From Cephalotus follicularis (lineage: Eukaryota; Streptophyta; Magnoliopsida; Oxalidales; Cephalotaceae): a DNA stretch of 64,000 bases. The DNA lies in assembly GCA_001972305.1 (NCBI GenBank), contig BDDD01000365.1:401591-465590 (forward strand), given 5' to 3'. Of the stretch, positions 2,279-63,441 are shown piece by piece. The position numbers and the translations under genes were made by a program. The notes under the pieces were generated by a model that had not been told where the DNA came from, made no database searches, and was given only the letters and a program-made list of their open reading frames with translations. Position 1 is the first letter of the stretch, and each line of letters begins with the position of its first letter.

Positions 2279-2570
2279 TCGTAAGCATCGATGCTTATGT
2301 CTTGAGCATTGACAGTTTGGGCTTTAGCGTTGACATGTGAGACTTTAAGCGTTTAAACGTTGACTTGAATATTCAGTGAAGCATTAAGCATCGACGGTTT
2401 CAATCAAAGCGTCAACAGTTTTTGTAAAGCGTTGACTCTTATTTAAAAACGTCGACGCTTAAAGTGTGTAATTCGATTATTAACCTTCTGTACCAGAGCG
2501 TTGATGCTTTGACATTAACCGCTGGCACTTTGAGTCTAGGCGCCAACGCTTACAAGAAATGCGTCAATGC
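2279..2570 (-). repeat. Phased array of AAGCGTCGACGCTT-like motifs in LTR U3
   Basis: About eleven variants of a near-palindrome with core TCGA/TTGA/TCAA/CCAA start their core at 2288, 2309, 2330, 2360, 2391, 2412, 2432, 2452, 2501, 2543 and 2564. The steps are 21, 21, 30, 31, 21, 20, 20, 49, 42 and 21 bp. The spacer sequence is otherwise different between units, so this is not a simple tandem repeat. Confidence 0.8.
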
Positions 2571-2750
2571 TTTGATCTATTTTCTGCAAATTTTTCACCA
2601 ATTTGAACCATTCTTCATGGACTTTGATCTTTTTACTCTTTTACCTGAAAATCAATCATATCCAACCAAAGTAATATGTTCCAAGCATAAAAATATAACA
2701 AATGACTCCTTGAAAACAACATATTTTTATGCTAAACACTATGGCAGACC

Positions 2751-3586
2751 TCCCCGAAACTCCTTGTTCCAGTCTGCCTATACCTGGCCAGGATTTAAGT
2801 TTGTAACAAACATAAATCTATATAACCTATGACCCTCAATATGGGTGTGATGATCCTCTGATGCGCACTCGCTCATACATCTCAATCTAGCTTCCACAAG
2901 GCCCAAAGACAACCCTTTTGCTAGCACATGGCTAGTGCTGGGGATGGTAGAAATCAAAGCCAAGCGGTTACTACACAATGCATGCTAGCCGCTCAAGTAT
3001 AAGGATACAACGCCAATGACGAATGATCAACTAGTCTCCTCTGACTATACACTACTAAGACTATAGGAAACCTATTGACAAAGGTATTGACTATCCAAAT
3101 AAGTAACCTATGAGGGGTCGGTTCAGTGTCATGCTTCCTTATACGCACCTCGCGTTAGCTTTAGGGTTAACCCAAATGGCATAGAGATGATCAATCCTCC
3201 CTAACATCGGGAGCAAGCGTAACACAGCAAGTCTTTGTGGTTCATCAATTGCCCTATGATCGTGAACCTATGACTTGGACCATTTTATCGGAAGGGAGTA
3301 AGGATCTCATTCTCATAACCTCTCAGGCAAGAGATCCAACCCTATTTCAGACAAGGCGTTATATGTGTTTTCAATTGACTTTGTGGTCAACTATTGTTCC
3401 ATTGAAATGGGTTCGGATAATACATATAACATTTTCCATTTTTACTGAATACACACATTAAACTAGAATGGAATTAAGACTGTATTAATCAAAAGTGTTT
3501 ACATACAAGCATGCAGCCACCCTCGTGGCATGCAGGGGCACCCCTAATCTAATAGTTATTTGTCATTATAACTTCAGTTTGCATTG
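2751..3586. other. Intergenic or unclassified repeat sequence
   Basis: No coding region is supported. The stretch at 2830-3460 has the look of a decayed LTR or leader (moderate GC, mixed short ORFs), but no TG...CA ends or partner copy could be found here. Confidence 0.4.
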
Positions 3587-6371: not shown

Positions 6372-6534
6372 TGTTGGCTTTTGTCACACCTTTAAATGTT
6401 TTTAAAGATTGATATTTCGATGATTAACAAACATGGAATACATGTATGCATATTTTTCTATCTTACGAACTCATATACATTCTTGAAATAATGTCCAAAA
6501 TGTTGCAAAGCTCCAAAATTCAGGTACAGCGCAA

Positions 6535-6912
6535 AACAGCCGACTGCCCAATATCAACAGCCGACCGTTGGAGTTGAGTAGCCGACTGTCTGAGGTTGAG
6601 TAGCCGAATAGAAATACAAAGAATCCCAGAAACTGGAATGGCACTCCACCAGCCGACTGGAACAGGGGTCCAGCCGACTTCTGAGGAGAAACAACCGACT
6701 GCCCAGAATTGCTAGCCGACTGTCCAATTAGACCAGTAGCTTTTTGGAAATCCTATCTTCCTCCACCAGCCGACTGAAATAGGGATGCAGCCGACTCTTT
6801 CATCAAAACAATCGACTGTCAAGATCAACCAGCCGACTGCCTGCACCAATGGCTATATTTTGAAATACGCGTCATCGACTCCAACTGACTGCCAAGATAA
6901 TCCAGCCGACTG
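6535..6912 (+). repeat. 21-bp phased array of AGCCGACTG motifs in U3 of element A
   Basis: About fifteen motif copies lie in groups of four. GCCGA-type cores start at 6539, 6560, 6581, 6603; 6652, 6673, 6694, 6715; 6769, 6790, 6811, 6832; then 6874, 6884 and 6905. Steps inside groups are 21-22 bp, and groups are 49-54 bp apart. Spacers are not repeats of one another. Many copies contain the DRE/CRT core GCCGAC; others read ATCGAC or AACCGAC. Confidence 0.9.
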
Positions 6913-6947
6913 GATCGGGTTTGAATTTTAAAAATACATTCGTTGGA

Positions 6948-6960
6948 GCATGTCTTTATA
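6948..6960 (+). promoter_or_regulatory. TATA-like box of LTR A
   Basis: GTCTTTATAAGCAAA lies about 40 bp after the last array motif and before the leader-like CAAGCAACTCAGGC segment. Position and sequence fit a copia LTR promoter. Confidence 0.45.
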
Positions 6961-7624
6961 AGCAAAAGTGAGATATCAATCCAAAAAAGAGATAGCAAGA
7001 CAACACTCAATTCTTTCAAGCAACTCAGGCTACATACACAATATTCTCAATACCAAAAGAGATCAATATCAAGAGCAAATCTACAACTTTCAAATCAATA
7101 TCAAAGCTTGCTTCAAGAGCATTATTGTCAACTTGTAAACATACTTGAGTGTTGTCATTCGTGAGATTTACTTAGCCATATCCAACATTTGAGAGGTTAT
7201 TTCGAGCAACCAAAACATCATTGTAATCTTTCATTGTAATAGGGGAGTGTACCCTTAGTGAGATAATCAAGAGGAGTGAACTCTTAGTAAGATTATCAAA
7301 GGGGAGTGAACCCTTAGTGTGTAAGTGATTGAGGTCAATCACTAAACTTGTAAGGTGTTTTGATTTGCACCCGGAACCCAAAATCAAAGTGTACTAGAAG
7401 GAGTCTAGTGGAATCTCAAGGAGGTCCTTGGGAAAAGTGGACGTAGATAAGAGTTTGTCGAGCCACTCTAAACTATGTTTGCAATATCTCTAACTCTATC
7501 TCTTTATTGTTTTTTACTTATCTTTGATAACTTACTATCGTTTGTATCTTTGCATTGTTGTTTCTTTTTGTCTAAGATCTAAAATCAACCCCATATCTTT
7601 AGGTTGCCATATAGAACTTTCAAT

Positions 7625-7701: not shown

Positions 7702-9299
7702 ATGGGTCTTGAAGGTTCCTCCATAACTAGAACTCCTTATTTTGATGGGAATAATTATAGTTTTTTGGAAAACTAGAATGACCATTTTTTTACAATCCTT
7801 AGACTATCAATTGTGGCAAATTATTGTTAATGGTCCTAAGGTTCCCACGAAAATTGTAGAAGGAGTAGTCTCTATAAAACCCGAAGATGAATTTAATGAT
7901 AATGATTTTAGAATGCTTCAATTAAATTCAAAGGCTAAACATGCTTTGTTTTGTGCCTTGGTTCCAAATGAGTTTAATCGTATTTCTTCATGTGATTCTA
8001 CTAAAGAAATGTGGAACTTGTTAGAAATTACATATGAAGGTATCAACCAAGTAAATGAATCAAAGATTAGCATGATTGTACATGAATATGAATTGTTTAT
8101 GATGTATGATGATGAATGTATTAATGATATGTTTACTCACTTTACTACGATTATTAATTCTCTTAAAAATCTTGGCAAAAGTTGTCCTAACCAAGAGTTT
8201 GTTAGGAAAATTTTAAGGTGTTTGCCAAAAAGCTGGACACCAAATGTGACATTGATTGAGGAAGCAAGGGACCTCACGACTCTTCCACTCGAACAGCTCC
8301 TTGGTTCTTTGATGACACATGAGACTACAATGAAAAATCATGAAAGTGAGGTGACAAAGGTGAGAAAAACTGTTGCACTAAGAGCCTCGAAAGAAGAAAA
8401 TGAGAGTGATGAAGATGGAGATATGGCCCTTATCACAACTCAATTTAAGAAGTTCCTCAAGAGTCAAAAAGTTAAAAAGGCTTTCAAGAAGTACTCTCAT
8501 AAAGAAGAATCAACAAAGAAAGAGGAATTAACTTGCTTCAAATGCAAAAAGCCAGGACACTTTAAAAGTGATTGCCCGAGTCTTAAAAATAAAGAGCAAT
8601 TCAAGAAAAACAATGAGCACTCCAAGAACAAGAAAGCTATGATTGCTACATGGAGTGATAGTGATTATTCGAGCTCCAATGAAGAAAGTGATGGCAAAGT
8701 AGCCAACATTGCATTCATGGCAATGGAAGAAGAAGAAGAAGATGAGGTAAATTTCTCTTTTGATGAGTTACAGAATGCTTATGAGAATTTGTTTTGTGAA
8801 TATGAAAACATTTGTTTGAAGAACAAATCTCTCAAGAAAAATATTATTTCTCTATCAAAAGAAAATGAGTCTATAACGAATGAAAATAATAATTATAAAA
8901 TGAAATAGAAGTGTTAAATATTTCTTTAAAGTTGTCAAATGATTTTAAGAAAGAAAATGAAGATTTGAAACTAGAAATTGATGCTTTGAAGAAAACTTTT
9001 TTTAAGTTTTCAAATAGTAGCGATAAATTGGATAATCTCATAGGTTTACAAAGACGTGTTTTTGACAAAGCCGGTTTAGGCTATGACGAAATGAAAAATG
9101 TTAAACACTCTAAAGTTTCTTTGTTAAAAAAATGAGCCCAAATTCACTTGTAATTATTGTGGTAGACAATGACATATTTCTACTTCCTATTTTTATAAAA
9201 AGAAATTAGGTCTTGTTAAAACTAGAAGCATTTGGGTTCCCAAAGGAACTTTTGTAACTAACATGCAAGGACCCAATTTCACTTGGGTACCAAAAGCTT
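7702..9299 (+). mobile_element. gag: gag region of element A (fossil)
   Basis: The reading shows a copia gag (UBN2-type): LQSLDYQLWQII, TKEMWNLLEITYEG, FTTIINSLKNLGK and RKILRCLPKSWTP form the capsid-like core. One CCHC knuckle follows (CFKCKKPGHFKSDC), then an acidic, coiled-coil-like tail and a terminal WVPKGTFVT/TWVPKA repeat typical of SIRE-lineage gag ends. Its relatives in element B share the same tail. Broken, a few breaks. Confidence 0.85.
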
Positions 9300-10037: not shown

Positions 10038-10335
10038 TGTTGGCTTTTGTCACCCCTTTAAACCCCTTTAAAAGTTTTTAAAGGTTGATATTTCGATGAT
10101 TAACAAACATGGAATACATGTATGCATATTTTTCTATCTTACGAACTCATATACATTCTTGAAATAATGTCCAAAGTGTTGCGAAGCTCAAAAATTTAGG
10201 TACAGCCCAAAACAGCCGTGTTGACGATTTAGTCTCAATCCTAGTTTTGATGATAACATATTTGCATTTAACAAGTTCACTTAATGTGCAAGTTATTAGA
10301 AAGATGTACAAAAGACAAAAGACTGCTACAAGGAA

Positions 10336-10905
10336 AAGACATCGATCCCTATTGCAAAAGACATCGACGTCTTAGAGCTACGAAAGTTACAGGCCACTTC
10401 TGGAGAAAGACATCGATCCCTTTCAAGAAAGACATCGACGTCTTTAGTGCACCAAAGTTACAGGTCAAATTTGAGCAAAGACATCGATCCTTACAGGCAA
10501 AGACATCGACGTCCAAAGGAAAGACATCGATCCCTTTCAAGAAGACATCGACGTCTTAAGCTTCCAAAGTTACAGGTCAAATTTGAGAGAAGACATCGAT
10601 CCTTGTTTCAGAAGACATCGACGTCCAGCAAAAGACATCGATCCCTTCCCTAAGACATCGACGTCTTTCTAGACCCATTTGCCAAAGCCAGAAAAGACAT
10701 CGACCCTTGAAGAAGAAGTCGATGTGATGCTCATAACTTCAAATACCTGGACTCATTCCCAGCAAAGACATCGACGCCTATAAAAGACATCGACGTCTTT
10801 TCAAAATGATTGATCCGGGAATTAGGGAACGGCTAGTTAACGCACTTTCAACGGCTAGTAACAGTCAAAGACATCGACACCTTTCTGAAGACATCGACGT
10901 CTTTA
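10336..10905 (+). repeat. Alternating, phased GACATCGATCCC / GACATCGACGTC array
   Basis: Eighteen motif copies have ACATCGA-type starts at 10339, 10361, 10410, 10432, 10481, 10503, 10524, 10544, 10593, 10614, 10634, 10654, 10697, 10717, 10768, 10787, 10871 and 10891. Steps are 19-22 bp within pairs and mostly 20-21 or 43-51 bp between pairs. The first member of nearly every pair is an asymmetric ATCGATCCC form and the second the near-palindrome GACATCGACGTC. The ORFs across it (repeats of SIPFKK/DIDV) are read-through of the array. Confidence 0.95.
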
Positions 10906-10993
10906 TGTCAGCAGAGACAAAAACAAAGTTGCATCAACACATTTTTAAATCATAAGCTTCCAGGATTTATGCAACGGCTACAAGACTTTTTTG

Positions 10994-11003
10994 TCTATAA
11001 ATT
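10994..11003 (+). promoter_or_regulatory. TATA-like box of LTR B
   Basis: TCTATAAATT lies about 100 bp after the last array motif and before the AACA/CAAT-rich leader. It is the likely LTR promoter. Confidence 0.5.
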
Positions 11004-11519
11004 GAAGATTCAAAACCTTCAGAAGAAAGGAAATTACACAACAATTCAACAATAATTACACAACATCAAGAGAGAAATCAAATTCAAGCATTCTAGTGTC
11101 AAAAAGCTCAAGTGCTCTATAGTGTTCTCAAAAGCTTCAAAGCTCTATCCTTTGAGTTTTTCTTTGTGATTCATATTATGTTCTGTATAAGCCAAATCAA
11201 ACCTATTGAGAGGTTATCTTGTAAACACATTCACAAACACATGTAAAAGAGGAGAATCCTCTAAGGTCTTGTGATTGAGTTCAATCACAAAGTTGTAAGG
11301 TGTAACGAATTGCTACCGTAATCAATTCAAGATAGTGGAAACTCAAGGAGCTCCCTTGGGAAAAGTGGACGTAGGCAAGAGTTAGCCGAACCACTCTAAA
11401 TCGGAGAAGTTTTTCTTTCCTTTCACTCTTTACTTTTAAAGTTTTTAATTTTCTGATATTTACATCAATATTCAATTCACCCCCCCCCTCTTGTATATTG
11501 CAAGAGTGCTTATTTCAAT

Positions 11520-15486: not shown

Positions 15487-15726
15487 TGTTGACGATTTAG
15501 TCTCAATCCTAGTTTTGATGATAACATATTTGCATTTAACAAGTTCACTTAATGTGCAAGTTATTAGAAAGATATACAAAAGGCAAAAGACTGCTGCAAG
15601 GAAAAGACATCGATCCCTATTGCAAAAGACATCGACGTCTTAGAGCTACGAAAGTTACAGGCCACTTCTGGAGAAAGACATCGATCCCTTTCCCCCCTCT
15701 TGTATATTGCAAGAGTGCTTATTTCA
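15487..15726 (+). repeat. 3' LTR of element B (240 bp, much shorter than the 5' LTR)
   Basis: It starts TGTTGACGATTTAGTC and ends TTGCAAGAGTGCTTATTTCA like the 5' LTR, and is followed by the AGCCG duplication. Most of the motif array present in the 5' LTR is absent here. Confidence 0.9.
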
Positions 15727-15731
15727 AGCCG

Positions 15732-16811
15732 ACTGCCCAATATGAACAGCCGACTGTTGGAGTTGAGTAGCCGACTGTCTGAGGTTGAGTAGCTGACTAG
15801 AAATACAAAGAATCCCAGAAACTGGATTGGCACTCCACCAGCCGACTGGAACAGGGGTCCAACCGACTTCTGAGGAGAAATAGTCGACTGCCCAGAATTG
15901 CCAGCCGACTGTCCAATTAGACCAGTAGCTTTTTGGTAATCCTATCTTCCTCCACCAGCCGACTAAAATAGGGATACAACCGACTGTTTCATCAAAACAG
16001 TCGACTGTCAAGATCAACCAGTTGACTGCCTGCACCAACGGCTATATTTTGAAATACGTGCCATCGAATCCAACTGATTGCCAAGATAATCCAGCCGACT
16101 AGATCGGGTCTGACTTTTAAAAATAGATCTGTTGGAGCATGTCTTTATAAGCAAAAGTGAGGTATCAATCCAAAAAAGAGATAGCAAGACAGCACTCAAT
16201 TCTTTCAAGCAACTCAGGCTACATACACAACATTCTTAATACCGAAAGAGATCAATATCAAGAGCAAATCTACAACTTTCAAATCAATATCAAAACTTGC
16301 TTCAAGAGCATTATTGTCAACTTGTAAACATACTTGAGTGTTGTCATTCGTGAGATTTACTTAGCCATATCCAACCTTTGAGAGGTTATTTCAAGCAACC
16401 AAAACATCATTGTAATCTTTTATTATAATAGGAGAGTGTACCCTTAGTGAGATAATCAAGAGGAGTGAACTCTTAGTAAGATTATCAAAGGGGAGTGAAC
16501 CCTTAGTGTGTAAGTGATTGAGGTCAATCACTAAACTTGTAAGGTGTTTTGGTTTGCACCCGGAACCCAAAATCAAAGTGTACTAGAAGGAGTCTAGTGG
16601 AATCTCAAGGAGGTCCTTGGGAAAAGTGGACGTGGGCAAGAGTTTGCAAAACCACTATAAACTCTGTTTCCAATATCTCTAACTCTATCTCTTTATTGTT
16701 TTTTACTTATCTTTGATAACTTACTATTGTTTGTATCTTTGCATTGTTGTTTCTTTTTGTCTAAGATCTAAAATAAACCCCATATATTTAGGTTGCCATA
16801 TAGAACTTTCA
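15732..16811 (+). repeat. 3' LTR of element A, distal part
   Basis: It resumes LTR A after element B with the same AGCCGACTG array, leader and U5, ending AGAACTTTCA. The array keeps its 21-bp spacing, with several motif cores changed relative to the 5' copy. Confidence 0.9.
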
Positions 16812-19339: not shown

Positions 19340-19340
19340 A

Positions 19341-48359: not shown

Positions 48360-49734
48360 TGTTACTTGTGAGAGCCGATGTGGTTCTTGCAGAGTGGTTA
48401 CTTGTGGGTGCCGAGGTGGTTCCGGCAGTGCAGAGGATGATGTGTCCGAGGTGGTTTCGATTGTGGTTATGAATCCGCGCAGCATCAGTGTTCCTATGAT
48501 CAATGTGATCCTTGGAGTCTTTGATCATTGTGTTGATTTCTCGGAGAGGTTGGCTCCTCGAACTTTATTATCATTATTACCTTCCTTGAGATTTATGTCA
48601 TTGAGTTGGTTGCTCTGATGTTTCTTTATATCTCGTTTTTCTAACAGTTTATATATGTACTCACGTTCCTCTCTGTTTCTTGAGCAGCGTTATACATATA
48701 TGTTAGTGTTGGTCCAGTTGGACATGGCCGTGATGTTGTATTCCTTGTGTCCAGGGATTTTGGACTCCTTGGGAATTTATTATTCTTGCTCACTAGTCAG
48801 TTGGACTAATCCCCTCTCAGTTTTTGTGCAATGGAGATCGTGGGTTGATGTTCTTTTGATCCACCCGACCAAGGCTTACATTGGAATAGGTAGACCTTGG
48901 TGTGAGCACCGTAGCCAGCTCCTCGGCTATTTTGGACATGCATGCATTTGGGGCATATTTTGTGGGGTGTTTGTATAGATTCTTTGGCGATTCTTGGGAA
49001 TCTTTAAGCCTTGTAATTAATGATAACCTTCAATGTATTCAACTTATGGTTTTCATATGTTTTTGATTGCTTGGGGATGCTCGGCAAATTTTGATGTTTA
49101 TGCCTTGAGATGTTTTATGATGTTGTTTCATGCACTGAGGTGTAGTGCTAAGTTGTAGTGATGTTACAGATGCGCCCGAGGACTCTTTAGCCCTCCCCGG
49201 AATAGGTAGGCTCTCCTCGGCATAAGTATCTCCTAGGCTTTAGTCGGACCAAACCTTTAGTTTGTGGATGGGGCATGCTAGCGTGGGAACCAAGTCCTCG
49301 GATATAGTGTCCTCAGACATGGTGTCCTCGGATAATTATGTATATAGTTGTCACACCCCGATTTCCATAAACAAGAGATATGGTAAAGGCAATTAACATA
49401 AAAGATTCAGCTTATGCAAAATACCAAGAATTTAAACTTTTGAAACATGATATCAGTTGCGGAAGCATTAAAACCCATAAGCTGAAAAGCATGTAACGTG
49501 CATCCCATATTACACGTTACCAAATACATGTCTGTCATAGTTGAAAGCCGACAAGACGAAGCGTGATAAAAAATACTGTAACGCCCGGAATTTTCGCACG
49601 TTGTAATATTTGTTTTCCAAATGTAACCTTGTTGTTGATTTAATGAGAAAGATGAATATTTTCGGTTGTTATGTTGATTCTAAATCAATTAAAGTGCTTA
49701 GAAGTTTGATTACTTAGTAAGTACACCAAAAAAA

Positions 49735-49880
49735 CAATCGACTGGTACGATAGACCAGCCGACTGGTTGAGTGTGTACTGGAACAGTCGACTGGTGGGAT
49801 GAACCAGTCAACTGGCCAACTGTCGAGCCACCTGGCAACCACAGCCACGAGGACAGCCGACTGTCGGGGAAGAACAGCCG
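49735..49880 (+). repeat. CAGTCGACTG/CAGCCGACTG array upstream of promoter in LTR I
   Basis: Cores lie at 49738, 49759; 49787, 49808; 49857 and 49878. There are three pairs, each exactly 21 bp apart, separated by 28 and 49 bp. Confidence 0.85.
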
Positions 49881-50709
49881 GCTGGATTATGCTCTGTTTT
49901 ATTTGCATGTGACGAGATCACATGCAAGGATTGATGAGGAGGAAGTGTGTGCCATCTGTGCGTCATGCGGCCAATGCAGAGGGAAGGGTCAACACCTGTG
50001 CGCCATGCAGGTCATGGGACAAGGAAAAATCAGTCCTGTGAGTGTGTGAATGCAGAGATGAGAGGTATGTGGCATTTAGTGCCATGGGGAAAGGAGTGGA
50101 GGAAAGAGGGAGAGAACCACCTGCATAAAACGTTCTCCTCTTCACCCCTCTCGCCCAGTGAATACAAAGGAAGAAAAACCAGTGAGAGTTACAGAGAAAA
50201 ACAGTGAAGAATCTTGAGAGAAAGAGAGTGAGTTTCTCAAATTGTTGAAAAAACAAGGAGAACTTGGAGAGGACAAATTGGAGCTACTGGACTTAGAGTT
50301 GAAGCTTCTGGGGAGCTCAAAACGTCACTGTTGGAACACAAAGAGGTGGACTTACAGATTCCTAACTTGGAATCAAAAGGTAGGGGAAGTTATGATTGTA
50401 TTTTTGAGTTCAAGATTACTGCATGTTTATGCGATTGGTTGCCTACTAGTATAAGCTATGATGTTCAGTTGATATGCCATGATCACTACTGGTTTTATGC
50501 ATGCCATGTTACTGTGGAGAATCCTTGAACTTATGCACATGCATGTTGAATTTTATCTTGGTATTGGATTGCTGGATAAAATGCTTGCTTACTGTTGTTT
50601 TCTATGGACTTGTTGCGAACTGATTGATGGTATTCTGTCTTGAGAATATATATGGTTGCTTGCAATGATCCTTTGAGTGATATATATTGGATTGCATGTA
50701 ACTGGGTTC

Positions 50710-50880
50710 CAGAACAGTCGACTGCCGAAGGAAGACAACCGACTACTCAACCGAAATAGTCGACTGTTGAAGGATAACAGTTGACTGCCTGATGAACAAG
50801 TCGACTGGTAGAAGGAACCAGCCGACTACTCATGTACTGATTACCCAGAACAGCCGACTGGTGAAGAATCCAGCCGACTG
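50710..50880 (+). repeat. CAGTCGACTG/CAGCCGACTG array downstream of promoter in LTR I
   Basis: Eight cores lie at 50718, 50739, 50760, 50781, 50801, 50822, 50854 and 50874, with steps of 21, 21, 21, 20, 21, 32 and 20 bp. The motif class is the same as in copia element A. Confidence 0.9.
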
Positions 50881-52192
50881 CCAAGCTACTGTTTGGTCCT
50901 CTCTTACTTAAAACGAAGCGCGATGATCCCGACTCCGTTTAGGATGCATTAGAGCATTTGTATGCATTGCATATGTACTAATTACTGCCTGTTTATTGAC
51001 TGATTATAATTGTTTATGATTTCTAGATTGCAATGTAAATTTGGGAATGCATATGTGAAACTGGAAATGACTATTTTGAATACAAAATAGATTTTTGATA
51101 ATAATACATCTCAAACAACTAGGAAAGTGACTTCCACCCTACTGAACTATTTAAAAGTATTTTTCCACTACTTAAAATACATATTTCAAATGTTTATGAC
51201 TCTTGAAAACATTTTGAAATAAACTTCCTATTGTCGATCTAAACGATCGCTACTGCACTGTTTACTGTATTGATTCACTGTATTTGCTCTGTGAATTTAC
51301 TGTGTTTGTACTTGAGCCACTAGTTGCATGACGGAGACTGTCAGCGCCGGCTAGTGGTAGGGTTGACCTAGGAGCCAGGAGTTGGCTGGGTAACTCACTG
51401 TACTGTACTGTTGCCTCGCTTGGTTACCTGGAGGAGGGACCGCAGTGGGAGTGTAACGTGGGGCTAGGAGATGGTGGCGTTACACACACTGCCTGCCTGT
51501 TGTGGGCCTTTTTCGGACTTACTGTACTGCTTGTTGTCCTTTTTGGACATTACTGTGCCTGTTGATGTAGCCCTGGCCGGGCTACTACTGTACTGTTATT
51601 GCATGCATATATTTTTCATATATATGTACCTACTGTTATTTTCAATGTACTGCTAAAATATATATTTTTCATATATATATAAACTGATATTTCTTGCACT
51701 GCATCATTTACGCATACATCACATGACATGCATTTAGTGTTGATCTCGAACTACCTCTATGACTTAGCCGAGTGAGGACAAAGGCTAACCCCCTACTTTG
51801 CAGATTGATGCAATGGACCGGTTGGATTAGTATGGACGAAGAACAAGCCTTATCTTAGTTGTTGTTGGTTTTATTTCTTCCGAGTTGTAATAAACTGGTT
51901 TGGTTTAAGGACTACTGTTGTACTGTACTGATGATTATCTGTTGTACTTTACTTTTGGGTTAATGTACTCTGATCACGCTTCGTTTTGTGGGCTTTTATC
52001 AATGACGGACCTGTAATGGGTAGCGTGTAATATGGGATGCACGTTACGTGTTTCAGCTTATGAGTTTAATGCTTCCACAACTGATGTCTTGTTTAAAAGT
52101 TTAAATTTTAATGGTTCTTGCATGAGCTGAATATTAATGTTAATTGCCTTTACCGCTTTTATGCGTGTCTACCAAAACCCGGGGCGTGACAA

Positions 52193-53404
52193 ATACATTA
52201 TCCAGTAACATCATCAGACAAGTAAACCGAAAGTACAGTACATAACACCCATTCAATACATAACCAACTTTACAAAACCCCAAAGGGACATAACCCTAAG
52301 CAAAAACATTATTAAAACTTTTTCTTCATCCATGCTGGTTCCCAAAGCCGGTCCAGTGCATCAATCTGTAAAGCAGGGGGTTAGCCTTTGTCCTCACTCA
52401 GCTAAGCATAAGTGCAATTTGGGATCAACATTATATGCATGTCATGAGATGTATGCGTAGTGATGCAGTATAGTAAAAATATCAGTTTATATATATATAT
52501 GAAAATATATATAAGTTAGCAGTACAGTAAAATAACAGTGGAGATATATATACGAAAATATATATGCATCAATAGTACAGTAGCAACCCGGCCAGGACTA
52601 CATCAAACAGGCACAGTAGCATCCGCATAGGACCAGTAAACAGTAAACAGTAAGTCCACAAAGGGACTAACAAGCAGGTAATCAGTACGAACAATGTCGC
52701 CAACTCCTGGCCCCACGTCGCACTCCTAACTTTGGCCCCGCCTCCAGACGGCACGAAGTAGGCCACAGTACAGTACAGTGAGTCACCCAGCCAACTCCTG
52801 GCTCCTAGGTCAACCGTGCCACTAGCCATCGCTGGCAATCTCCGCCATGCAACTAGTACGGCACAAACACAAACACAGCCCAAACACAGCATAGTCACAG
52901 TGCAAACACCAAAAATAGTCATAGTAACAGTACGGTTCAAGCAATTTTATAAAATAATTACTTGATCAAAATTATATCAGTTTACTTCAAGTCATTTAAA
53001 ATTAAAAAAATATAAAAGCATTTCTAAAATGATTGTAACGATTTTAGAAATTAATCGTAGTCAATAATCAGTCAATAAACAGTACATATGCAATGCATAC
53101 AAATGTTCTAGTGCACCCTTACTGAAATCGGGATCATCGCGCGTCATTTAAGCGAGAATTGTCCAAACAGTGCCTTAGAGCGTCGACGTTTTCCATGGGT
53201 GTCGACGCTTATCTCCTCTAAGCGTCGACACTCAATGTTTAGCGTTAGCGCTTCAAGTGGTATTCTTCGCGTCATCAGTCACCTTTAGCGTCGATGCTTC
53301 AAGGTAAGGAACCTTGAGAGACGGCACTTTTCCTTTGGCATCGACGCCTTGAGGTAGGATCTCAAGCGTCGACGTTTATCATGCCTTTGATCACACTCAA
53401 AACT
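52193..53404 (-). repeat. Left arm of a large inverted repeat (minus-strand LTR)
   Basis: It is the reverse complement of 54422-55804 with scattered differences and one extra segment of about 60 bp. The outer piece 49349-49576 belongs to the same arm, separated by solo LTR I. The GCGTCGACGC array is at 53170-53380. Confidence 0.85.
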
Positions 53405-54421
53405 ACGGCATTGACGCCTACGCAGCAAAGATGCGCACGTGAACCATGCACATGCACTTCGACGCCTTTTGATGACGTCGACGCCCTTTAGGAAAAACGC
53501 TATAAGCATCGACGCCTGCATGTAAACGTCGACGCTTTGTGTTGTGTTCCTGGTATGCACAGACAGCAAATAGACTTATCTCATGGAGGCCTTTTTCATG
53601 CCACTTTTCAGGCGCCTTCACATACGTTTTATGACATGTTATACATGCAATGTGACGCCTAACTTGCCAGGATTGAAAAAGGAATTGATGGGAAAGGACA
53701 TGTGTGCATGCATGGACTAAGAAAGAGGGGAGAAGGACACCTGCTACACCAGGTTTGTATGGGAGAGAGAGAGAATGAAACCAATGACACATGTTGAGCA
53801 TAACAAAATCTCCATTTGCATAAACACCCCCTCCTCTCGTCTCTCTCATCTGCTACCGTAGAAAAGGAAAGACAAGGGAGTTTTCAAAGAGAAACACTGA
53901 GAGAGAGATAAAACCAGGAAAGGTTTGGAGAGAGAGAGAGAGCTCAAAACTCCATTGTTGAGCAAGGGAGAGCTTGGAACTCGGATAACAACTGCTGGAG
54001 CGAACTTGGGAGTCAAGTCGAACCTGGGAGCTCAAAGGGACTGATTGAGTACTAGAAGTCATGGACTTTCGGCTTCTAACTTGAAGCCAGAGGTAGGGGA
54101 AGCCATAATTGTAATTTTGAGCTTAATATTCATGCATGGACAGTGATTTTTGTGCATAGTTTTCATGGTTAATTGAACTGTTTTTGGTCACTGAATTTAT
54201 GCCATGTTGTATTGGATGTGTAATATGATGTTGCATGTCGGTTTTCTAGGCTTAATGCATGTTGGATTGCATGTTGTTGAGTTGGAGAGGTTATTGTTTT
54301 GTCATGTCGTGAGGAAGAAGATAACTGATGCTCGAAACCGTCGATGCCTTTTAAAAACATCGACACTTTGGACTGTAAAATGCGATATTATTACTGAATG
54401 TGTATTAAACGTCGACGCAAT
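53405..54421 (+). repeat. Central part of LTR J (U3 end and leader)
   Basis: It lies between the inverted arms. It carries GCGTCGACGC-type motifs at 53440-53540, a GA-rich leader-like region (53870-53945) and AGGTAGGGGAAGCCATAATTG, also found in LTR I. It reads in plus orientation and appears unique to the plus-strand LTR. Confidence 0.65.
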
Positions 54422-54660
54422 AGTTTTGAGTGTGATCAAAGGCATGATAAATGTCAACGCTTGAGGTCCTACCTCAAGGCGTCGATGCCAAAGGAAAAGC
54501 GCCGATGCTCAAGGTTCCTTACCTTGAAGCGTCGACGCTAAAGGTGACTGATGACGCGAAGAATACCACTGGAAGCGTTCACGCTAAACGTTGAGTGTCG
54601 ACACTTAGAGGACATAAGCGTCGACGCCCATGGAAAACGTCGACGCTCTAAGGCACTGTT
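54335..54660 (+). repeat. GCGTCGACGC array in LTR J
   Basis: Cores lie at 54341, 54360; 54412, 54454; 54482, 54502, 54532; 54578, 54598, 54621 and 54640. Common steps are 19-23 bp, with others of 28-30, 42, 46 and 52. The position within the LTR matches the GACTG array of LTR I, but the motif is the GCGTCGACGC class of the Athila-like LTR. Confidence 0.85.
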
Positions 54661-55804: not shown

Positions 55805-55807
55805 GCA

Positions 55808-58800
55808 TGGTATCAGAGCATATTCCATATATGCTTAGCTAGGATATTATCGTCGACAATTAACCGATTAGATAAGGAACTTATTCAAGCTAATGAATTC
55901 CTTGGTGATTAACAAATTGTTTGCTTGAGATGATTACTGATGACATCTTTCCATATAGGAACAAAATATGGATGGAAGGAGAAGGCACGTGAGGCCTCAA
56001 GCTGCTGAGGATAACGTACCTCAGGAAACGAACGAAGGAGGGGATCTGATGGATCACATAAACGAGTATTTCCAACAATAGATGGCTGCTAGCATGATTC
56101 ATCTGCAAGAGATTAAGTGGTCATACACATATCGTATAACTGACTATTTCCAGCAGCAGATAGCTGCTAATACCGCTCACCTAGAGGAAATGCGGCAGTT
56201 GTGTGTCCAAACTCTACAGGTCAAACGGACTAGGCTAGCTCCGTAAGAGTGGCAAGATGTTGACTCTTCAACCAAGTCATCCAGGAATAGTTCTCAGCAA
56301 ACGACCACTAAGGGAACTCTGGGTCAAGGGAGTGGGGCGAGAAAGGAGACTTGTCTCCACTGTGGGCGTAAGGGCCATCAGCTACAGGAATGTTGGTTAA
56401 AGAATAAGTTATGCATGAGGTGTGGGGAAACTGGCCATGTGATGAGGGATTGTACAGGAAATCCATCTCAACAAACTGCTAACCGTGGAACTCCTAGTCA
56501 GGGGAGAAATACGAGAGTTGGAGGTTGCAGACATTGTGGTCGTGCGGATCACCAGCTGAGGAATTGCTGGAAGTGGAAAGGATGGTGCTTGAAGTGTGGA
56601 GCCTCTGACCATTTGTGGAGGGATTGTCCGGAGAGACAAGGAACAATACTGGCTGGACCTATGAGTAATCGTGATGCTGCGGCGAGATCCTCGCATCAGA
56701 GAAATACCGGTAAAAGCATCATGAGAGGTAAGGCCTTCGCTCTTGCTTTTAAAAGCTTACCTCTATTACTAGAAGTACATTGTATTGATACTGATTGTAA
56801 GTGTCTTGTGGATGTTAAGTTAGGACCTTTGGGACTAACTCGTGAATAAAAGGATGATTGTTCTAAGTAACTATGTGAGTAAACGAATACACATGTATAC
56901 AGTCTAGTATGTGACGACGCACACACTTAGAGAACGTCTAGACCCCCTAATAGTGTGATAAATGCATAGATCGTATCGCATCGGTATCGATTATATAGAA
57001 TGGTTATCGGTAATGAGTTGATGAGACTTGAATGGAATTATCCAATGTTGAACAAGGCAAGTACAAGTTTGGGCTCGATCATGTGATCTTTCTTGATCAC
57101 ATAGTATCTGGAGAAGCCTTGATGGTGGATCCGTCAAAGACCGAAGTCATGCGGGACTGGCCGCAACCAAAGAATGTGACGGAGGTGCGTAGTTTCCTTG
57201 GGTTGGTGGGGTATTATCGGAGGTTCATCCAGAACATTTCAAGGATAGCCATGCCTTTAACTAGGATAACCCAGAATAAGACTTTGTTCGTCTGGGACAA
57301 TGATTGTGAGGTCAGCTTTTGAGAGCTGAAGAATCGGTTGGTTACTGCACCTGTTTTGTCATTACCTGAGGGTAATGAAGGTTTTACAGTCTACAGTGAT
57401 GCATCGGGTAAGGGCTTGGGCTGTGTGTTAATGCAGCGGGGCATAGTGATTGAATATGCCTCGATGAAGTTGAAGCCCTATGAGGAGTACTACCCGACGC
57501 ATGATCTTGAACTGGTAGCGATTATTTTTGCTCTTCAGAAATGGAGGCACTATCTGTATGGGGCGTAATTTGATATCTTTACGGATCATAAGAGTTTGAA
57601 GTACCTGTTCTGGCAGGATACGCTGAACATGAGGCAACGAAGGTGGGTAGAGTTCTTTAATGATTATGATTGTAGTGTTCAGTACCACCCAGGGAAAGCG
57701 AATGTGGTCGTCGACGCCTTGAGTCGCAAGGCCGTGATTGCCAGTATGATGGTGTCGCAATGGAAGATGTTGGAAGACTTCCAAGAGTGGACTCCGTCCT
57801 TACGATCACCGGGTATTTTTGTGGCTAGCATGAGAGTACAGACATCATTGCTTGATGAAATAAAGAACGCTTAAGCACATGATCCTGAATTGCAGTAGAT
57901 TCGGGAGAATCTGAACTCGTAGTCTGATTTTTGGGTACATGTCGATGGTATTCTGAGATTTCGGGGACGGGTGTGTCTACCGGATGAACACGGGTTAAAG
58001 AGTGAGTTACTCTATACGGCTCACAATTCTCGGTACAGTATCCATCCTTTTAGCACCAAGATGTATCAGGATATGAAGAAGAATTACTGGTGGTCAGGTA
58101 TGAAACGCGAGATTGCCGAGTATATTGCGAAGTGTCTGACTTGTCAGCAGGTCAAGACCGACAGGATTATTACAGCCATTGCCAGTTGCAGAGTGGAAAT
58201 GGGAACACATAACCATGGATTATGTATCAGGATTTCCACTGACTAGACATTGTCACAATGCAGTGTGGGTTATCGTGGATAGACTCACGAAGTCAGCTCA
58301 TTTTCTACCCACTCATGTCACAGATTCAGCAAGCAAGTTGGCTTGGTTGTACGTCAAGGAGATTGTGAGGTTGCACGGTATTCCCATGAGTATTGTTTGT
58401 GATAGAGATTCGATCTTCACTTCCAACTTTTGGAAGAGGTTTCAGACAGCTTTTGCGACAAAGCTGAACCTGAGCACTGCCTTTCACCCATAGACCGATG
58501 GGCAGTCAGAGCGTACCATCTAGACCTTGGAGGATATGCTTCGAGCCTGTGTTATCGACTTTGCAGGTACTTGGGAGGACCATATTTCCCTGATAGAGTT
58601 TTTATATAACAACAACTATCACTCCAGTATCTGTATGGCCCCATACGAGGCTCTGTATGGGAGGAAGTGTAGATCACTCGTTTGTTGGGGTGAGGTCGGT
58701 GAACGACCGTTGCTTGGATCTGATCTGGTTGAGGAGACTTCGGAGAAAGTCAAGGTGATCAAAGAGAAGCTGCTTGCTGCTCAAATCCGACAGAAGAGCT

Positions 58801-59301
58801 ATGTGGACAGTGTCAAGAGGAGGCCTTTGACTTTCAGTGTTGGTGATCATGTGTTCTTAAAGGTTTCACCATGGAAGGGCGTGCAAAGGTTTGGGAAGAA
58901 GGGCAAGTTAGCTCCGCGCTATATTGGTCCTTTTGAGATTCTGGAGAGAGTTGGGGAGGTAGCCTACCAGCTTGCCTTACCTCCTGCACTGTCGAACGTG
59001 CACGAAGTCTTCCATGTGTCTATGCTGAGAAGATATATTCGAGACCCATCGCATGTCTTGGATTATGATACGGTTCCTTTGCGAGATGACCTTTCTTGCG
59101 AGGAGTTGCCAGTGCGGATCCTGGACTGGAAGACGCAGGGGCATGAGGAACCGAACCATCTCTATGGTGAAGGTTCAATGGCAGTTCCACCAACCGGATG
59201 AGGCCACTTGGGAATGTGAGGATGATACCCGATAGCGTTACCCGCACTTGTTCTAGTACTGTTATAATTTCGAGGACGAAATTCCTTAAAGGAGAGGTGG
59301 A
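55808..59301 (+). mobile_element. Element J interior: Tekay-like gag and pol (fossil)
   Basis: A shortened gag with four CCHC knuckles (56350-56640) is followed by the RT end ([16 protein letters not shown]), RNase H ([32 protein letters not shown]), integrase ([60 protein letters not shown]) and the GPF module (LAPRYIGPFEILERVGEVAYQL). Protease and most of RT are not recognisable. A purine tract AAAGGAGAGGTGGA precedes the LTR start at 59302. Broken, several breaks. Confidence 0.85.
56350..56640 (+). mobile_element. Four-knuckle CCHC region in gag of element J
   Basis: Four C-x2-C-x4-H-x4-C motifs occur: CLHCGRKGHQLQEC, CMRCGETGHVMRDC, CRHCGRADHQLRNC and CLKCGASDHLWRDC. Motifs 1 and 3 resemble each other, as do 2 and 4, which suggests duplication of a pair. 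Such knuckles bind element RNA; one or two are usual in plant gypsy gag. Confidence 0.8.
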
Positions 59302-59558
59302 TGTAACGCCTGGGATTTTCACACATTGTAATAATTTAATTTCCGATGTAACCTTATCACGGAATTAATCGTCGACGCTTTAGCCCGAAATTTCAATACT
59401 TAAATCAAAGAACTCCTTTGAAATTCCTTTTTCAAATTTCGACCATTAAAAAGAGAAAACATCATCAAAGTCGGGAATTTCATTATTCTCATTAATTCTG
59501 TGATAATGTTACATCATAAATTAAATTATTACAATGTGTGAAAATCCCGGGCGTTACA
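59302..59558. repeat. Short inverted LTR-start pair at the right end of block H
   Basis: TGTAACGCCTGGGATTTTCA at the left and its near reverse complement at the right form arms of about 75 bp around an AT-rich centre. The left arm is the 3' LTR start of element J and the right arm is the outer end of block H. Confidence 0.8.
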
Positions 59559-59921
59559 ATAGTGTGTTTGTATTTTATGTACATGGTGTCCTCGGACATA
59601 GGGTGTCCTCGGACGTGGGGCGTAACTTTGAGTTAGTTTTGCCTCCTCGGTATAGTTACCCGACCTTCAACCCATATCCTTGTGTTGTATAGTAGATGCC
59701 GTCGTTTCGAGAGCTCGGGTACAGCCCAGTTCTAACGCCTTCGTGTTCGTGGTCTTTTGGGGACCTCGGTAAGTCTACCCTCAGGAGACGTTGCCTTACG
59801 TCGAATCCCATAGTCTATTTTTTTTGAGGCTTTTGGTTAGTGTAGTTGAGGTAGAGGATCCTTGGGGTGTATCCTTCCTCTTGGCGCGCCTCGGCTCGTG
59901 GGGAACGAACGGGTCGTGTCA

Positions 59922-60553
59922 AATAGTGTGTTAAAAGGGGCTCGTTTTCTACCCATTACTGAATGTATTCAACTTACATTCAATAGATTAGTTCGTTATT
60001 TTGATGTTCGACGTGTTTTAGGAGTAAGTGCCCAAAATAACGGAGAGGTATTCACTCCTTATATTTTTGCAAAGGAGACAACCTTGATGGTTAAGGCAAA
60101 TGCACACACACTTAAATTGTTTAATCATAATACATGATTGTTTGAAGTAGTAACACAAATGGGAAAAAATATGTAGATAGTGAATTTAGAGAAAGGTATA
60201 TGTCGCTATGGGAAAGTGGCAAATTAACAAATATCCATGTTCTCATGTTTTGAGTGTGTGCGAGGAGCTGTCATTGAATAGTTGGCAATATGTAGAGAAA
60301 TTTTATTCCATTGAAGAGTATTCAAGGACTTGGGCTCCCCAATTTCACCCCCTTCAGCATGAAGCTTATTGGTCAGAAGCAAATTTCAAAATGATTCCAA
60401 ATTATAGTATCAAACGATCAAAGAAGGGTCGACTGCAATCTACATGACTTCGGAATGAAATGGATGTCAAAGAGGGGCGTAATGTAGTGCGTTGTGGAAT
60501 ACGTAGAGAGAAAGGCCATGATCTGTGTAAATGCCCTGCTAGATCATCGAAAG
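59922..60553 (+). pseudogene. MULE transposase, C-terminal third (continues from 37416)
   Basis: It resumes at NSVLKGARFLPITECIQLTF after the AATAG duplication of F and reads through VRYFDVRRVLGVS, the SWIM-type region (CRYGKWQINKYPCSHVLSVC, where the usual second Cys is Tyr), YSRTWAPQFHPL and a CCHC-like end (CGIRREKGHDLCKCP). Internal stops occur after FNHNT and after LQST. The gene is cut again at 60553 by solo LTR K. Confidence 0.85.
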
Positions 60554-63441
60554 TGACACGACCCGTCCTAGACTGCCTCACCTGGACGAGCCACGTCACA
60601 GGAGAATTCCACCATCTCCTCTTCCAACTCAATTTTTAACTTAACATTCATTAACTTTATAGGAGGTCTGCATAAGATTACTGGTTACCGTATCACTATG
60701 GCAGAGCACGCTAAAGCTTAAAAGGTATAATAATTAAAGCATTCACTGATATACTTCAGACCTACAACGGATGGTCTGACTTAAGGTTTCATATCACATG
60801 CTTCCTCTAGCAGAGCACACTAAGGCTTAACATTTAGCTTAAGGCAGACTATGTTTCCACTACGTCATACAACAGACCTACGCTGGGTGGTCTGACTACA
60901 ACTTCCTACTCTGGACTCTACATCCAGACTTTATTTTGTCTTATCTCGTATATTCACGTCCTCTGATTCTATAATCAGACTACGCGTTTGGCAGGGAATG
61001 GGGCGCTGAGCTCCGAGGTCTACGTTACAACCTCCAGCTCTGTTTAAGCTTCTCTACTTCAAGGCTGACCTCTTCCTCTGAGGTCTACCACAAAGCTTTG
61101 AGCTCTGACATATACTTCCTAGTCTGATCTCTGACATATGCCTAACACCTTTCCTACCAAGTCTAACGTGTGGTCTCTACTTCTGAAGTATGCATTTAAA
61201 GCACTGAGGTCTGACTCTAAGCCCTACTCCAAGGTCTACTTCAAGCCGGGAGCTCTGACCTCTGCTCCCGAGGTCTGACCTTCACCTCCGAGGTCTGCCT
61301 TACCACTGATCTCTACTCCCCGAACTCTGACTTAACACTTGAGCTATGCCTAGTCTTTTGGACACTTCCTTTCACCTCTGGGCTCTACACTAAGGCCTCT
61401 TACATTTACTTATGCTAAAACTCAAGATCAACACAAGATATCACTGTCATTTACTTATATAAAAACATCAAATATCATACCATACTCATCTACCTGGCAG
61501 AGTAGCCACATAGGCACTATATTTCATTTAAACAGATTTAACCACATAACCTTAACAATCTGGGATTCAATTACCACAAGTTCTCAGATTTGAATATAAA
61601 TCATCATAATATTACAATAATCCCAAAATGCCCCATGTATGCATGTGATGCTGGTCTGAATTGCCAGCAAGGGTGCCTAGACCCGTGGTCTACCTTTATC
61701 CAGATATCACTTCTACTGCTCTGGTGGATCAGGTGGATTATCCTCTGCTCTTTCAACTGCAAAAGAATCTGGGAGGGGGTTAGTCCAAATGACTAGTGAG
61801 TGAGGACAAAGCATTTCCTGCTGCACCCAACAACAACAGGATGCGCTAAAGGAATTATGCCATGTTATGCCCAACTGGGAAGAAACATCAATATAAAATC
61901 ATGACTTCAATAAAAAAAATGCTCAAGCAATACTCAACAAATATAAATGAGAGTCACAATGAAAATCAAGGTATCTGAACATCAAAAATTCAAAGATACG
62001 ACTACTGATTACAATTCAAAATATGTGCCAAAAAATCATAAAATCAGAGGAGGATGCTGGTACCACTATCATATCTCAATCTCATATATGATGCCCTATC
62101 TGATTGGCAATACTGCTCTATCGCCATATCTCAATGGCAATACTTTGCTCTGCCGCCATATCTTGATGGCAAAAACAAATCAACTGCTGTATCCAATACG
62201 AATATCTAGGCCATAGACTACAGGACTCTACATATTCTTCATATACTGGTATAGAGTGTCTTTGCCTTTGCCTCATCAGATGGGGTGGCATGATCAATGC
62301 ACGAACCCAGCCCTAGTCAGAGAAATTACATATCTGAACCTCGACCGAGGGAACGTCGTTTACCACACGGATATACCCTCATCGAAAATCATATATCATA
62401 AAGTATCCAACATGGTCAAATGGATGAGGGATAGAACCTCAACTGTATTCACACTCAGCATACTGTCATAGACCAACGGTCATGCTGCAGATCCAGGTAA
62501 TGGAACCCAGGGGTAGTCCCACTTAATATCCCATCATAGACAATGAGCCATGTTAATGAGAGTTGATCGTCAAACGTCCACCTCACCATCGACTGGTAAT
62601 ACATATCAGCAATCAGGGCACCTAGCATCAGAGTACAACATGGTATAACAATTCACGATATCAGATGCATCAGAATAGGACCAAGTCACCCAGATCATTG
62701 AGCACACATACGCTCGGAATCATATCAAAATCAAGAACTACGTCAACGAAAGACAAGTGGGATTCAATTTCCGGTCAATTATCACATACCATGAACACAA
62801 AGAGGCCACATATAAACAAGACTCTCAAAAACAAGGTAACAGAGGAAGGGAATGTCCCACTCACTGGTATACTACAAGGTACTCCCGCATACTAGCTTCT
62901 ATGTGCGCCAGCTCAACCCCTGGATCCTCATCTGCAAAGTCATCACATAACCGGCTTAAAATCGTATGCTCTATACTCATAACATGAGCTACATGCTCAA
63001 AACATCATTACCTCAACCACCTCTACTTCAAAATGAAACTTACTTAAAAGCGCAATACACGGATACTATTAGCAGAGAAAAGGTGAGCTTACCTTAAACA
63101 TATACCAGTCGTCTGGTTGTGAATCACTTGTCACCTCAAAGTCTTGAAAAAAATATCGTCGAAGGAAGAACTGAGCACTTACAAGCGTAACACCACTTCA
63201 GTTGAACTAGTCAAATGAAGAATACTCTAGTTTCTTCACTTGATAAACCATGCATAGGAAACAGTGAAGCTTTCTCAAGAAGCTTTGCAAGATACATCAC
63301 TCTCATGGGCCGAACTTTCCATAATTGGGCCTTTAATTTGCATATCTCATCCATAGTCCACTTATTAAATATTTCCATACTAAGCCCAATAAGCTAGCCC
63401 ATCAAATAATCACACTCCAACTCAGGGTACGGGGTGTTACA
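60554..63441 (-). mobile_element. Solo LTR K (2888 bp), gypsy type, minus orientation
   Basis: Ends TGACACGACCCG and GGGGTGTTACA with a perfect GAAAG duplication (60549-60553 and 63442-63446). On the minus strand it reads TGTAACACCCC...GGGTCGTGTCA, similar to the LTR ends of F. No coding domain is found in 2.9 kb. It contains a (C)GAGGTCTGAC array (61010-61330) and, near 61770, the box TTAGTCCAAATGACTAGTGA shared with element D. Confidence 0.85.
61010..61330 (-). repeat. Array of GAGGTCTGAC-like motifs in LTR K
   Basis: At least twelve variants (GAGGTCTAC, GAGCTCTGAC, AAGGTCTAC and similar) have cores near 61017, 61037, 61063, 61082, 61102, 61122, 61208, 61233, 61252, 61272 and 61292. Most steps are 19-20 or 25-26 bp. 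The core is not TCGA, but the spacing matches the other arrays. Confidence 0.75.

What the first reader, a model, noticed from the sequence alone, without database searches (positions are those of the whole stretch)
2279..61330. Convergent phased-motif architecture in at least six LTR families of both superfamilies
Arrays at 2279-2570, 6535-6912, 10336-10905, 46630-46965, 49735-49880 with 50710-50880, 54335-54660 and 61010-61330 share one design: short motifs at 19-22 bp, with longer steps often near 30-32, 42 or 49-52 bp. Three motif classes (CAGTCGACTG, GACATCGATGTC, GCGTCGACGC), all with a TCGA core, each appear in unrelated LTRs: copia A with gypsy I, copia B with gypsy G, Athila-like with J. 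I know of no described element feature that matches. A shared host factor family or a host silencing mark could drive it.
Basis: partly seen in the sequence, partly recalled or inferred. Interest (0 to 1): 0.95.

Follow-up and report, generated by a model that had tools for sequence, protein, structure and literature searches.

The report
Phased palindrome arrays shared between retrotransposons
Six jumping-gene families from both main groups in this plant DNA carry rows of the same short mirror-image DNA words about two helix turns apart in their terminal repeats, a feature described before in one group and seen here in another with shared words.

Summary
The arrays are real. Steps of 19-23 bp make up 45 of 72 steps, against 10 expected, and longer steps also lie near whole helix turns.

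The feature is not undescribed. It matches the palindromic "repeated motif" (RM) boxes of Sirevirus (copia) LTRs (PMC2829016), and elements A and B pass the Sirevirus signatures tested. What I did not find in the papers searched is such boxes in Ty3/gypsy LTRs (I, J, probably G, and an Athila-like element), with word classes shared across superfamilies. Related families (A/B; I/J) hold different classes in a like position of the LTR.

Corrections: 61010-61330 is a different, non-TCGA word; two of the three classes intergrade; B and G may share a ~114-bp block by exchange.

Best explanation: enhancer-like arrays of dimer sites for a few host DNA-binding factors, recruited repeatedly by unrelated elements; the factor is unknown. 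RNA-hairpin silencing is the main rival; A's 5' array, strictly phased but not foldable beyond chance, argues against it as primary cause.

The parts
   Evidence: AGCGTCGACGCT at 1533 and a one-mismatch copy at 1554
2279..2572 (-). GCG-class array of the Athila-like LTR, much decayed (core TCGA in 5 of 10 listed boxes, counting 1533-1565; further decayed boxes unlisted)
   Evidence: (0 of 200 shuffles); gag hit at 14-988 minus
6372..7622 (+). 5' LTR of Sirevirus-type copia A
   Evidence: junction at 7621; Retrotran_gag_2 and zinc knuckle at 7727-8905
6537..6912 (+). CAG-class array of A: 13 boxes, 9 of 12 steps exactly 21 bp; TATA-like box at 6957
15726..16101 (+). CAG-class array in the 3' LTR of A (LTR 10038-10218 and 15727-16811, split by element B)
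10219..11518 (+). 5' LTR of Sirevirus-type copia B, inserted in the first box of A's 3' LTR array (TSD AGCCG)
   Evidence: RVT_2 in 12551-14809
10338..10901 (+). GAC-class array of B: 18 boxes, 11 of 17 steps 19-22 bp; TATA-like box at 10996
15606..15688 (+). remnant of B's array in its truncated 3' LTR (15487-15726)
45934..48359 (+). G: solo LTR with TSD TGTTA, probably gypsy by LTR layout and a weak match to I
   Evidence: G/I 39 bp, 82%, E 0.01
46612..46964 (+). GAC-class array of G (of 13 boxes 8 nearest GAC, 2 nearest GCG, 3 tied)
49577..52191 (+). I: solo LTR with TSD AATAC, homologous to the J LTR
   Evidence: I/J E 3e-117
49735..49885 (+). CAG-class cluster 1 of I (6 boxes)
50715..50881 (+). 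CAG-class cluster 2 of I (8 boxes), abutting a block conserved with J
52192..53405 (-). minus-strand J LTR piece with GCG-class boxes at 53179-53376
53408..53536 (+). GCG-class cluster 1 of the plus-strand J LTR (5 boxes)
54338..54647 (+). GCG-class cluster 2 of the plus-strand J LTR (9 listed boxes), in the same slot as I's CAG-class cluster 2
56247..59198 (+). J internal region: zinc knuckle (56247-56846) and SH3_Tf2-1 domain (58524-59198), pointing to Ty3/gypsy
61000..61350 (-). K: array of a different palindromic word (CAGAGCTCTG / GAGGTNNACCTC), no TCGA; K LTR matches the E LTR
   Evidence: E/K E 3.6e-14

Best explanation
The arrays are cis-regulatory arrays in LTRs: rows of dyad binding sites for dimeric host DNA-binding proteins, set at two helix turns (and at near whole-turn longer gaps) so that bound dimers sit on one face of the DNA and act together to drive element transcription. 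They are the same kind of feature as Sirevirus RM boxes, but here they also occupy gypsy LTRs. A few host factors (roughly a CAGYCGA-type and an RCRTCGA-type half-site) supply the word classes; arrays grow by local duplication, and a family can switch class while keeping the array in its slot. Shown: boxes, phasing, slots, class sharing, class difference between related families. Inferred: protein binding, dimers, activation, host origin of the factor, the switch as an event.
For: Palindromic words with 0 of 200 shuffles in 8 of 11 LTR pieces. Steps of 19-23 bp in 45 of 72 against 10 expected; near whole-turn phase of longer steps (27 of 20,000 jittered sets). In A and B the array starts 165 and 119 bp into the LTR and ends 45 and 95 bp before a TATA-like box, broadly as in PMC2829016, which reports a start at 200-400 bp. 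I and J LTRs align (E 3e-117) with the array slot kept but the word differing, CAG against GCG class; A and B, both Sirevirus-type, also differ. Six families fall into three pairs, each crossing superfamily (A/I, B/G if G is gypsy) or gypsy lineage (J/Athila-like). A's 5' array has no excess RNA folding (z -0.35, 34 of 100 shuffles fold as well) yet has the strictest 21-bp steps. Boxes with a CCGA core in A and I face one way (GCCGAC 10, 7 and 5 against GTCGGC 0, 0 and 0). CG sites in boxes differ less between copies than CG sites elsewhere when two comparisons are pooled (6 of 58 against 26 of 94, p 0.013).
Against: No factor is identified and no binding or expression data were at hand. No plant genome was held, so the claim rests on one or two copies per family. 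Tandem units (71 and 112 bp in B) make steps non-independent and explain part of the regularity. Helical phase is weaker at 10.5 bp (mean cosine 0.20) than at 10.15 (0.45). B and G may share a block by descent. RNA folding exceeds shuffles in B, G, I cluster 2, J cluster 2, the Athila-like array (z -4.4 to -9.3) and moderately in A's 3' array (z -2.5, 1 of 100). The CG result is small, each comparison alone gives p 0.046 and 0.125, and in the J pair non-CG/CHG sites in boxes differ more than elsewhere (5 of 35 against 32 of 665, p 0.03).
Confidence: 0.55

Rival explanations
1. RNA hairpin and silencing reading: the palindromes matter because transcripts fold into hairpins that feed small-RNA production, as proposed for maize Sireviruses.
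For: RNA folding beyond shuffles in B (z -4.4), G (-9.3), I cluster 2 (-5.4), J cluster 2 (-5.7), Athila-like (-4.8) and more weakly A 3' (-2.5). Small RNAs map to maize Sirevirus palindromes (passages of PMC10760457 and PMC5311732).
Against: A's 5' array shows no excess (z -0.35); 20 of 25 A boxes have a CCGA core that does not self-pair fully. Hairpins do not need helical phasing (inference). Palindromes fold by nature, so folding alone does not discriminate. I cluster 1, J cluster 1 and J minus were not folded.
Confidence: 0.2
2. Array exchange: one or more arrays moved between copia and gypsy LTRs by recombination or gene conversion, so class sharing reflects descent rather than repeated recruitment.
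For: B 10688-10800 and G 46627-46740 align with like step order (19-52-19 and 21-51-19), an identical 21-bp start including an off-consensus CCCTT, and one spacer pair that 0 of 300 shuffles reach (best of 24 pairs); the array score is reached by 6 of 400 spacer shuffles. BLAST between LTRs also joins B/G (121 bp, 72%, E 5e-9) and A/I (35 bp, 86%, E 1e-5), boxes included. A/I1 27 of 400.
Against: No excess for A/I2 (389 of 400) or Athila/J (295 and 207 of 400). One Athila/J2 spacer pair also reached 0 of 300 (best of 9), but both stretches contain unlisted decayed boxes (GTCAACGCT), so it is not a clean spacer test. Spacers evolve fast, so old exchange would leave no trace, which cuts both ways.
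Confidence: 0.2
3. Neutral tandem growth: local duplication of one box plus spacer gives a regular array with no function.
For: TRF units in A (22 bp), B (71, 22 and 112 bp) and G (19 bp).
Against: Within families most spacers differ while boxes are kept; the step is alike across unrelated LTRs; the slot is kept while the word differs in I and J; recurrence of words across superfamilies is unexplained.
Confidence: 0.05

Closest known systems
Sirevirus repeated-motif (RM) boxes (Bousios et al. 2010, PMC2829016; sections 7, 9, 12 and passages seen)
   Same: Short palindromic words, 8-32 copies per element, clustered in the upper half of the LTR before a TATA box; each family has its own word; two published words have a TCGA core.
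   Different: The paper calls the boxes Sirevirus-specific (absent from the other copia elements studied). Here boxes also fill gypsy LTRs, classes are shared between superfamilies, and steps are phased; phasing was not in the parts I saw. Arrays of A and B start nearer the LTR start than the published 200-400 bp.
Maize Sirevirus LTR palindromes with small RNAs (Bousios et al. 2016, not held; seen only as cited in passages of PMC10760457 and PMC5311732)
   Same: Palindrome clusters in the regulatory region of LTRs, fast evolving.
Repeat arrays as regulatory regions of transposable elements in general (a discussion passage of PMC10760457, citing five papers not seen)
   Different: No shared words between superfamilies are mentioned in that passage.
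Retand (gypsy) arrays of short tandem repeats between pol and the 3' LTR (PMC11963269, one passage)
   Same: A gypsy lineage with arrays of short repeats, and antisense ORFs often with DNA-binding capability.
   Different: Located outside the LTR in that passage; palindromic words not mentioned there.
CRT/DRE element GCCGAC bound by DREB/CBF factors (recalled, not tested)
   Same: A and I boxes with a CCGA core mostly contain GCCGAC, in one orientation.
   Different: The other four families have mainly TCGA cores; binding not tested.

Membership tests
Sirevirus (elements A and B) | 5' LTR/internal junction CA-ATTGG-TATCAGAGC | tested here: met
   exact in A at 7621; one mismatch at the last base in B at 11516; signature from PMC2829016 section 12
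Sirevirus (elements A and B) | AT/TG attachment site between terminal PPT and 3' LTR | tested here: met
   GGAGAT/TGTTGG before 10038 and GGGGAGAT/TGTTGA before 15487; signature from section 7
Sirevirus (elements A and B) | several PPT copies upstream of the 3' LTR | tested here: inconclusive
   GGGGGAGA at 9728 and 9828 (A) and 15173 (B); the published octamer's letters were not in the sections I read
Sirevirus (elements A and B) | copia gag and reverse transcriptase | tested here: met
   A gag Retrotran_gag_2 (2.9e-27); B RVT_2 (1.7e-62). No reverse transcriptase of A was found among the ORFs searched
Sirevirus (elements A and B) | place in the Sirevirus clade of a reverse transcriptase tree | not tested
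   no reference set was at hand
Sirevirus RM boxes | at least 8 palindromic copies in the LTR upstream of a TATA box | tested here: met
   A 13 and B 18 boxes, TATA-like sites at 6957 and 10996; palindromy is imperfect in 20 of 25 A boxes
Sirevirus RM boxes | CGG-CCG signature of the box core | tested here: not met
   cores here are mainly CCGA or TCGA; the published Tnd-1 box is also an exception
Ty3/gypsy (element J and, by LTR homology, I) | gypsy-type protein domains | tested here: met
   zf-CCHC in 56247-56846, SH3_Tf2-1 in 58524-59198; I/J LTR homology E 3e-117
Ty3/gypsy (G) | homology to a gypsy element | tested here: inconclusive
   solo LTR; weak matches to I (E 0.01) and J (E 0.003), the J match lying in the box array
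Athila lineage (left edge) | Athila-type pol phylogeny | not testable with these tools
   only a Retrotrans_gag hit; the tRNA-Asp type primer site is recalled; pol lies outside the window

The most novel reading that the evidence does not exclude
In a given plant genome unrelated LTR retrotransposons of both superfamilies write their enhancers in one shared 'code' of a few phased palindromic words set by the host's transcription factors, and families switch words in place; so RM classes follow the host, not the element lineage.
Probability: 0.35. Interest if true: 0.82.

Novelty: new variant of a known kind. Interest (0 to 1): 0.62.

Why it matters
RM boxes were reported as a Sirevirus trait. 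If the same words recur in gypsy LTRs of the same genome, the trans-acting factor is likely a host protein common to many elements, and it could be found by binding assays on a few synthetic boxes. That would give a handle on how plant retrotransposons are switched on, and on why such regions attract small RNAs. It also offers a natural experiment: related families with different words in the same slot.

Tried and rejected
Whole-genome scan of the window's assembly: none held. First palindrome scans were little use: perfect 10-mers only (91 in the window against 63-70 in three shuffles), and a version swamped by AT-rich words; timed out. Box searches in viral contigs gave 3 contigs with one GAC box each, taken as chance, and 0 with paired GCG boxes; the CAG pair search did not run. 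Nine paper searches ran; three listings were cut (25 of 285, 20 of 89 and 15 of 16 papers), and most listed papers were seen as listings only. Faster change of boxes between A's two LTRs (14 of 120 against 40 of 960, p 0.0014) looked like targeted methylation, but within CG plus CHG context boxes do not exceed the rest (12 of 75 against 13 of 61). Half-site asymmetry: B 106 of 108 left against 87 of 108 right, J cluster 1 20 of 30 against 26 of 30, the other six arrays nearly even; no common rule. Flank similarity does not separate same-class pairs (z 3.3, 4.6, 7.9) cleanly from other pairs (z -0.3 to 6.6). One search counted three false 6-bp steps in B from a loose threshold; one search is the recount on hand-curated sites, which carries its own bias and leaves out A's 3' array, J minus, B's 3' remnant, the boxes at 1533-1565 and some decayed boxes (at least three Athila-like and one J, seen).
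Full report
What is there. The window looks like plant DNA with nested LTR retrotransposons. Copia A (5' LTR 6372-7622) has its 3' LTR split by copia B (10219-15726; TSD AGCCG). A gypsy element E (37417-59921, flanked by AATAG; pol domains) carries in its 3' LTR a solo LTR G (45934-48359, TSD TGTTA) and a J element (49349-59558, TSD ATAGT), which in turn holds a solo LTR I (49577-52191, TSD AATAC) (borders read by eye). An LTR K, which matches E's LTR (E 3.6e-14), lies on the minus strand at about 60556-63442, and an Athila-like element with a gag hit lies at the left edge.

The arrays are more than chance. Whole-window hits to the three words are 39, 33 and 23, against at most 5, 4 and 2 in five shuffles each. 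In an unsupervised search over palindromic 5-bp arms with at least two G/C and a centre of 0-3 bases, 8 of 11 LTR pieces reach counts that 0 of 200 dinucleotide shuffles match. Their top words are CAGTCGACTG (A 5', A 3', I), ACGTCGACGT (B), ACATCGATGT (G), GCGTCGACGC (J minus, J plus) and AGCGTNNACGCT (Athila-like). The three others are E 5' (14 of 200), E 3' part (113 of 200) and K (4 of 200). Of 13 other pieces the lowest is 8 of 200. A looser setting gives 0 of 200 in 8 of 11 LTR pieces (K in, J minus at 3 of 200, E 5' at 3 of 200, E 3' part at 63 of 200) and in 1 of 13 others.

Phasing. With one array copy per family and hand-curated sites, 45 of 72 steps are 19-23 bp; random placement gives a mean of 10.0 and a maximum of 23 in 20,000. 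Arrays differ in strength: A, B and I cluster 2 have P of 0.0002 or less, J cluster 1 only 0.09. A uses exactly 21 bp in 9 of 12 steps. Of 26 longer steps, 5 are 28-32, 4 are 41-42, 11 are 46-54 and 3 are 70-71 bp; phase-zero periodicity near 10.15 bp is matched by 27 of 20,000 jittered sets, any-phase by 252 of 20,000, but the score at 10.5 bp is lower (0.20 against 0.45), and duplicated units in B are not independent.

Same slot, different word. The LTRs of I and J are homologous over much of their length (E 3e-117). Both hold cluster 2 directly before the block that begins ACTGTTTGG. I has CAG-class boxes there and J has GCG-class boxes. A and B are both Sirevirus-type by junction and attachment signatures, share LTR sequence downstream (149 bp, 74%) and both have the array upstream of a TATA-like box, yet A is CAG class and B is GAC class. 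Each class recurs in another superfamily or lineage: CAG in A and I, GAC in B and G, GCG in J and the Athila-like LTR. The GAC and GCG words intergrade (exact RCRTCGAYGY in 9 of 18 B, 8 of 13 G, 8 of 14 J and 3 of 10 Athila-like boxes, 0 of 13 A and 0 of 14 I), so two half-site types may be nearer the truth than three.

Convergence or exchange. Keeping boxes and shuffling spacers, the best local alignment is unremarkable for A/I2, for Athila against both J clusters and for the six cross-class pairs tried, borderline for A/I1 (27 of 400) and suggestive for B/G (6 of 400) (11 pairs in all). The B/G match runs over four boxes with like steps and includes one spacer pair that 0 of 300 shuffles reach, as the best of 24 pairs; an Athila/J2 pair also reached 0 of 300, as the best of 9, but both stretches contain unlisted decayed boxes. 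BLAST joins the B and G LTRs (E 5e-9) and, over 35 bp, A and I (E 1e-5), boxes included. I leave exchange open, mainly for B/G.

DNA or RNA. Arrays of B, G, I (cluster 2), J (cluster 2) and the Athila-like LTR fold as RNA better than shuffles (z -4.4, -9.3, -5.4, -5.7, -4.8). A's 5' array does not (z -0.35) and its 3' array does moderately (z -2.5, 1 of 100); 20 of the 25 A boxes read CCGA at the core. GCCGAC in A 5', A 3' and I faces one way: 10, 7 and 5 against none. GCCGAC is recalled as the CRT/DRE core; that is a lead only. Since A is the most strictly phased and least foldable, a DNA-level role fits better.

Change at boxes. Between A's two LTRs boxes differ more than the rest (14 of 120 against 40 of 960), but this follows from their CG and CHG content. 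CG sites in boxes differ less than other CG sites in A (2 of 24 against 9 of 28, p 0.046) and in the J pair (4 of 34 against 17 of 66, p 0.125); pooled 6 of 58 against 26 of 94, p 0.013. Against this, non-CG/CHG sites in J boxes differ more (5 of 35 against 32 of 665, p 0.03), and the Athila-like boxes keep TCGA in only 5 of 10.

Known work. RM boxes in Sirevirus LTRs are described in PMC2829016 (sections 7, 9, 12 and passages seen): 13 elements carry 8-32 palindromic copies, stated to be absent from the other copia elements; words include Tnd-1 ACAATCGATTGT and Vitis CGGTCGACCG. PMC10760457 (passages) reports that maize Ty3 elements lack an obvious peak of such structures, and says that regulatory regions of transposable elements are often arrays of sometimes palindromic repeats. 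PMC11963269 (one passage) notes short tandem repeat arrays between pol and the 3' LTR of Retand gypsy elements. My nine searches of the held open-access library, three with cut listings, showed me no report of such palindrome arrays in gypsy LTRs; subscription papers are mostly not held, so this is not proof of absence.

Verdict. Real, partly known. The copia arrays are new members of a described feature. The gypsy arrays, the class sharing across superfamilies and the differing word in a kept slot are what looks new, on one window only.

Noticed in passing
49349-59558: The J element has ends in minus orientation but its interior (53406 to about 59430) in plus orientation. The left breakpoint lies inside the box arrays, so palindromic boxes in the two LTRs may have mediated an inversion.
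   Followed up: partly
10214-10218 and 15727-15731: Element B inserted inside the first palindromic box of A's 3' LTR (TSD AGCCG); a single case, in line with the weak palindrome preference of LTR element insertions reported in PMC6911290 (passages).
   Followed up: no
15487-15726: B's 3' LTR keeps its first ~206 bp and, by eye, last ~34 bp; most of it is missing, by deletion or assembly collapse.
   Followed up: no
50380-51806 and 54092-55411: I and J LTRs show intron-like borders (AGGTAGGGG ... CCCCCTACTTTGCAG / TTTACAG), so cluster 2 may lie in an intron of the leader; judged by eye.
   Followed up: no
1744-1894: Three copies of a 51-bp unit (TRF) with inverted TATACGG/CCGTATG arms in the Athila-like LTR, a second array type.
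   Followed up: no
39277-39367 and 49294-49334: E LTR has a few TGTCCTCGGACA-like palindromes, some 15 bp apart; borderline against shuffles.
   Followed up: partly
60556-63442: K, a minus-strand LTR related to E's, has its own palindromic word; its GAGGTCTGACCTC stretches resemble the rice Osr10 box CGGTCTGACCG in PMC2829016, by eye.
   Followed up: partly
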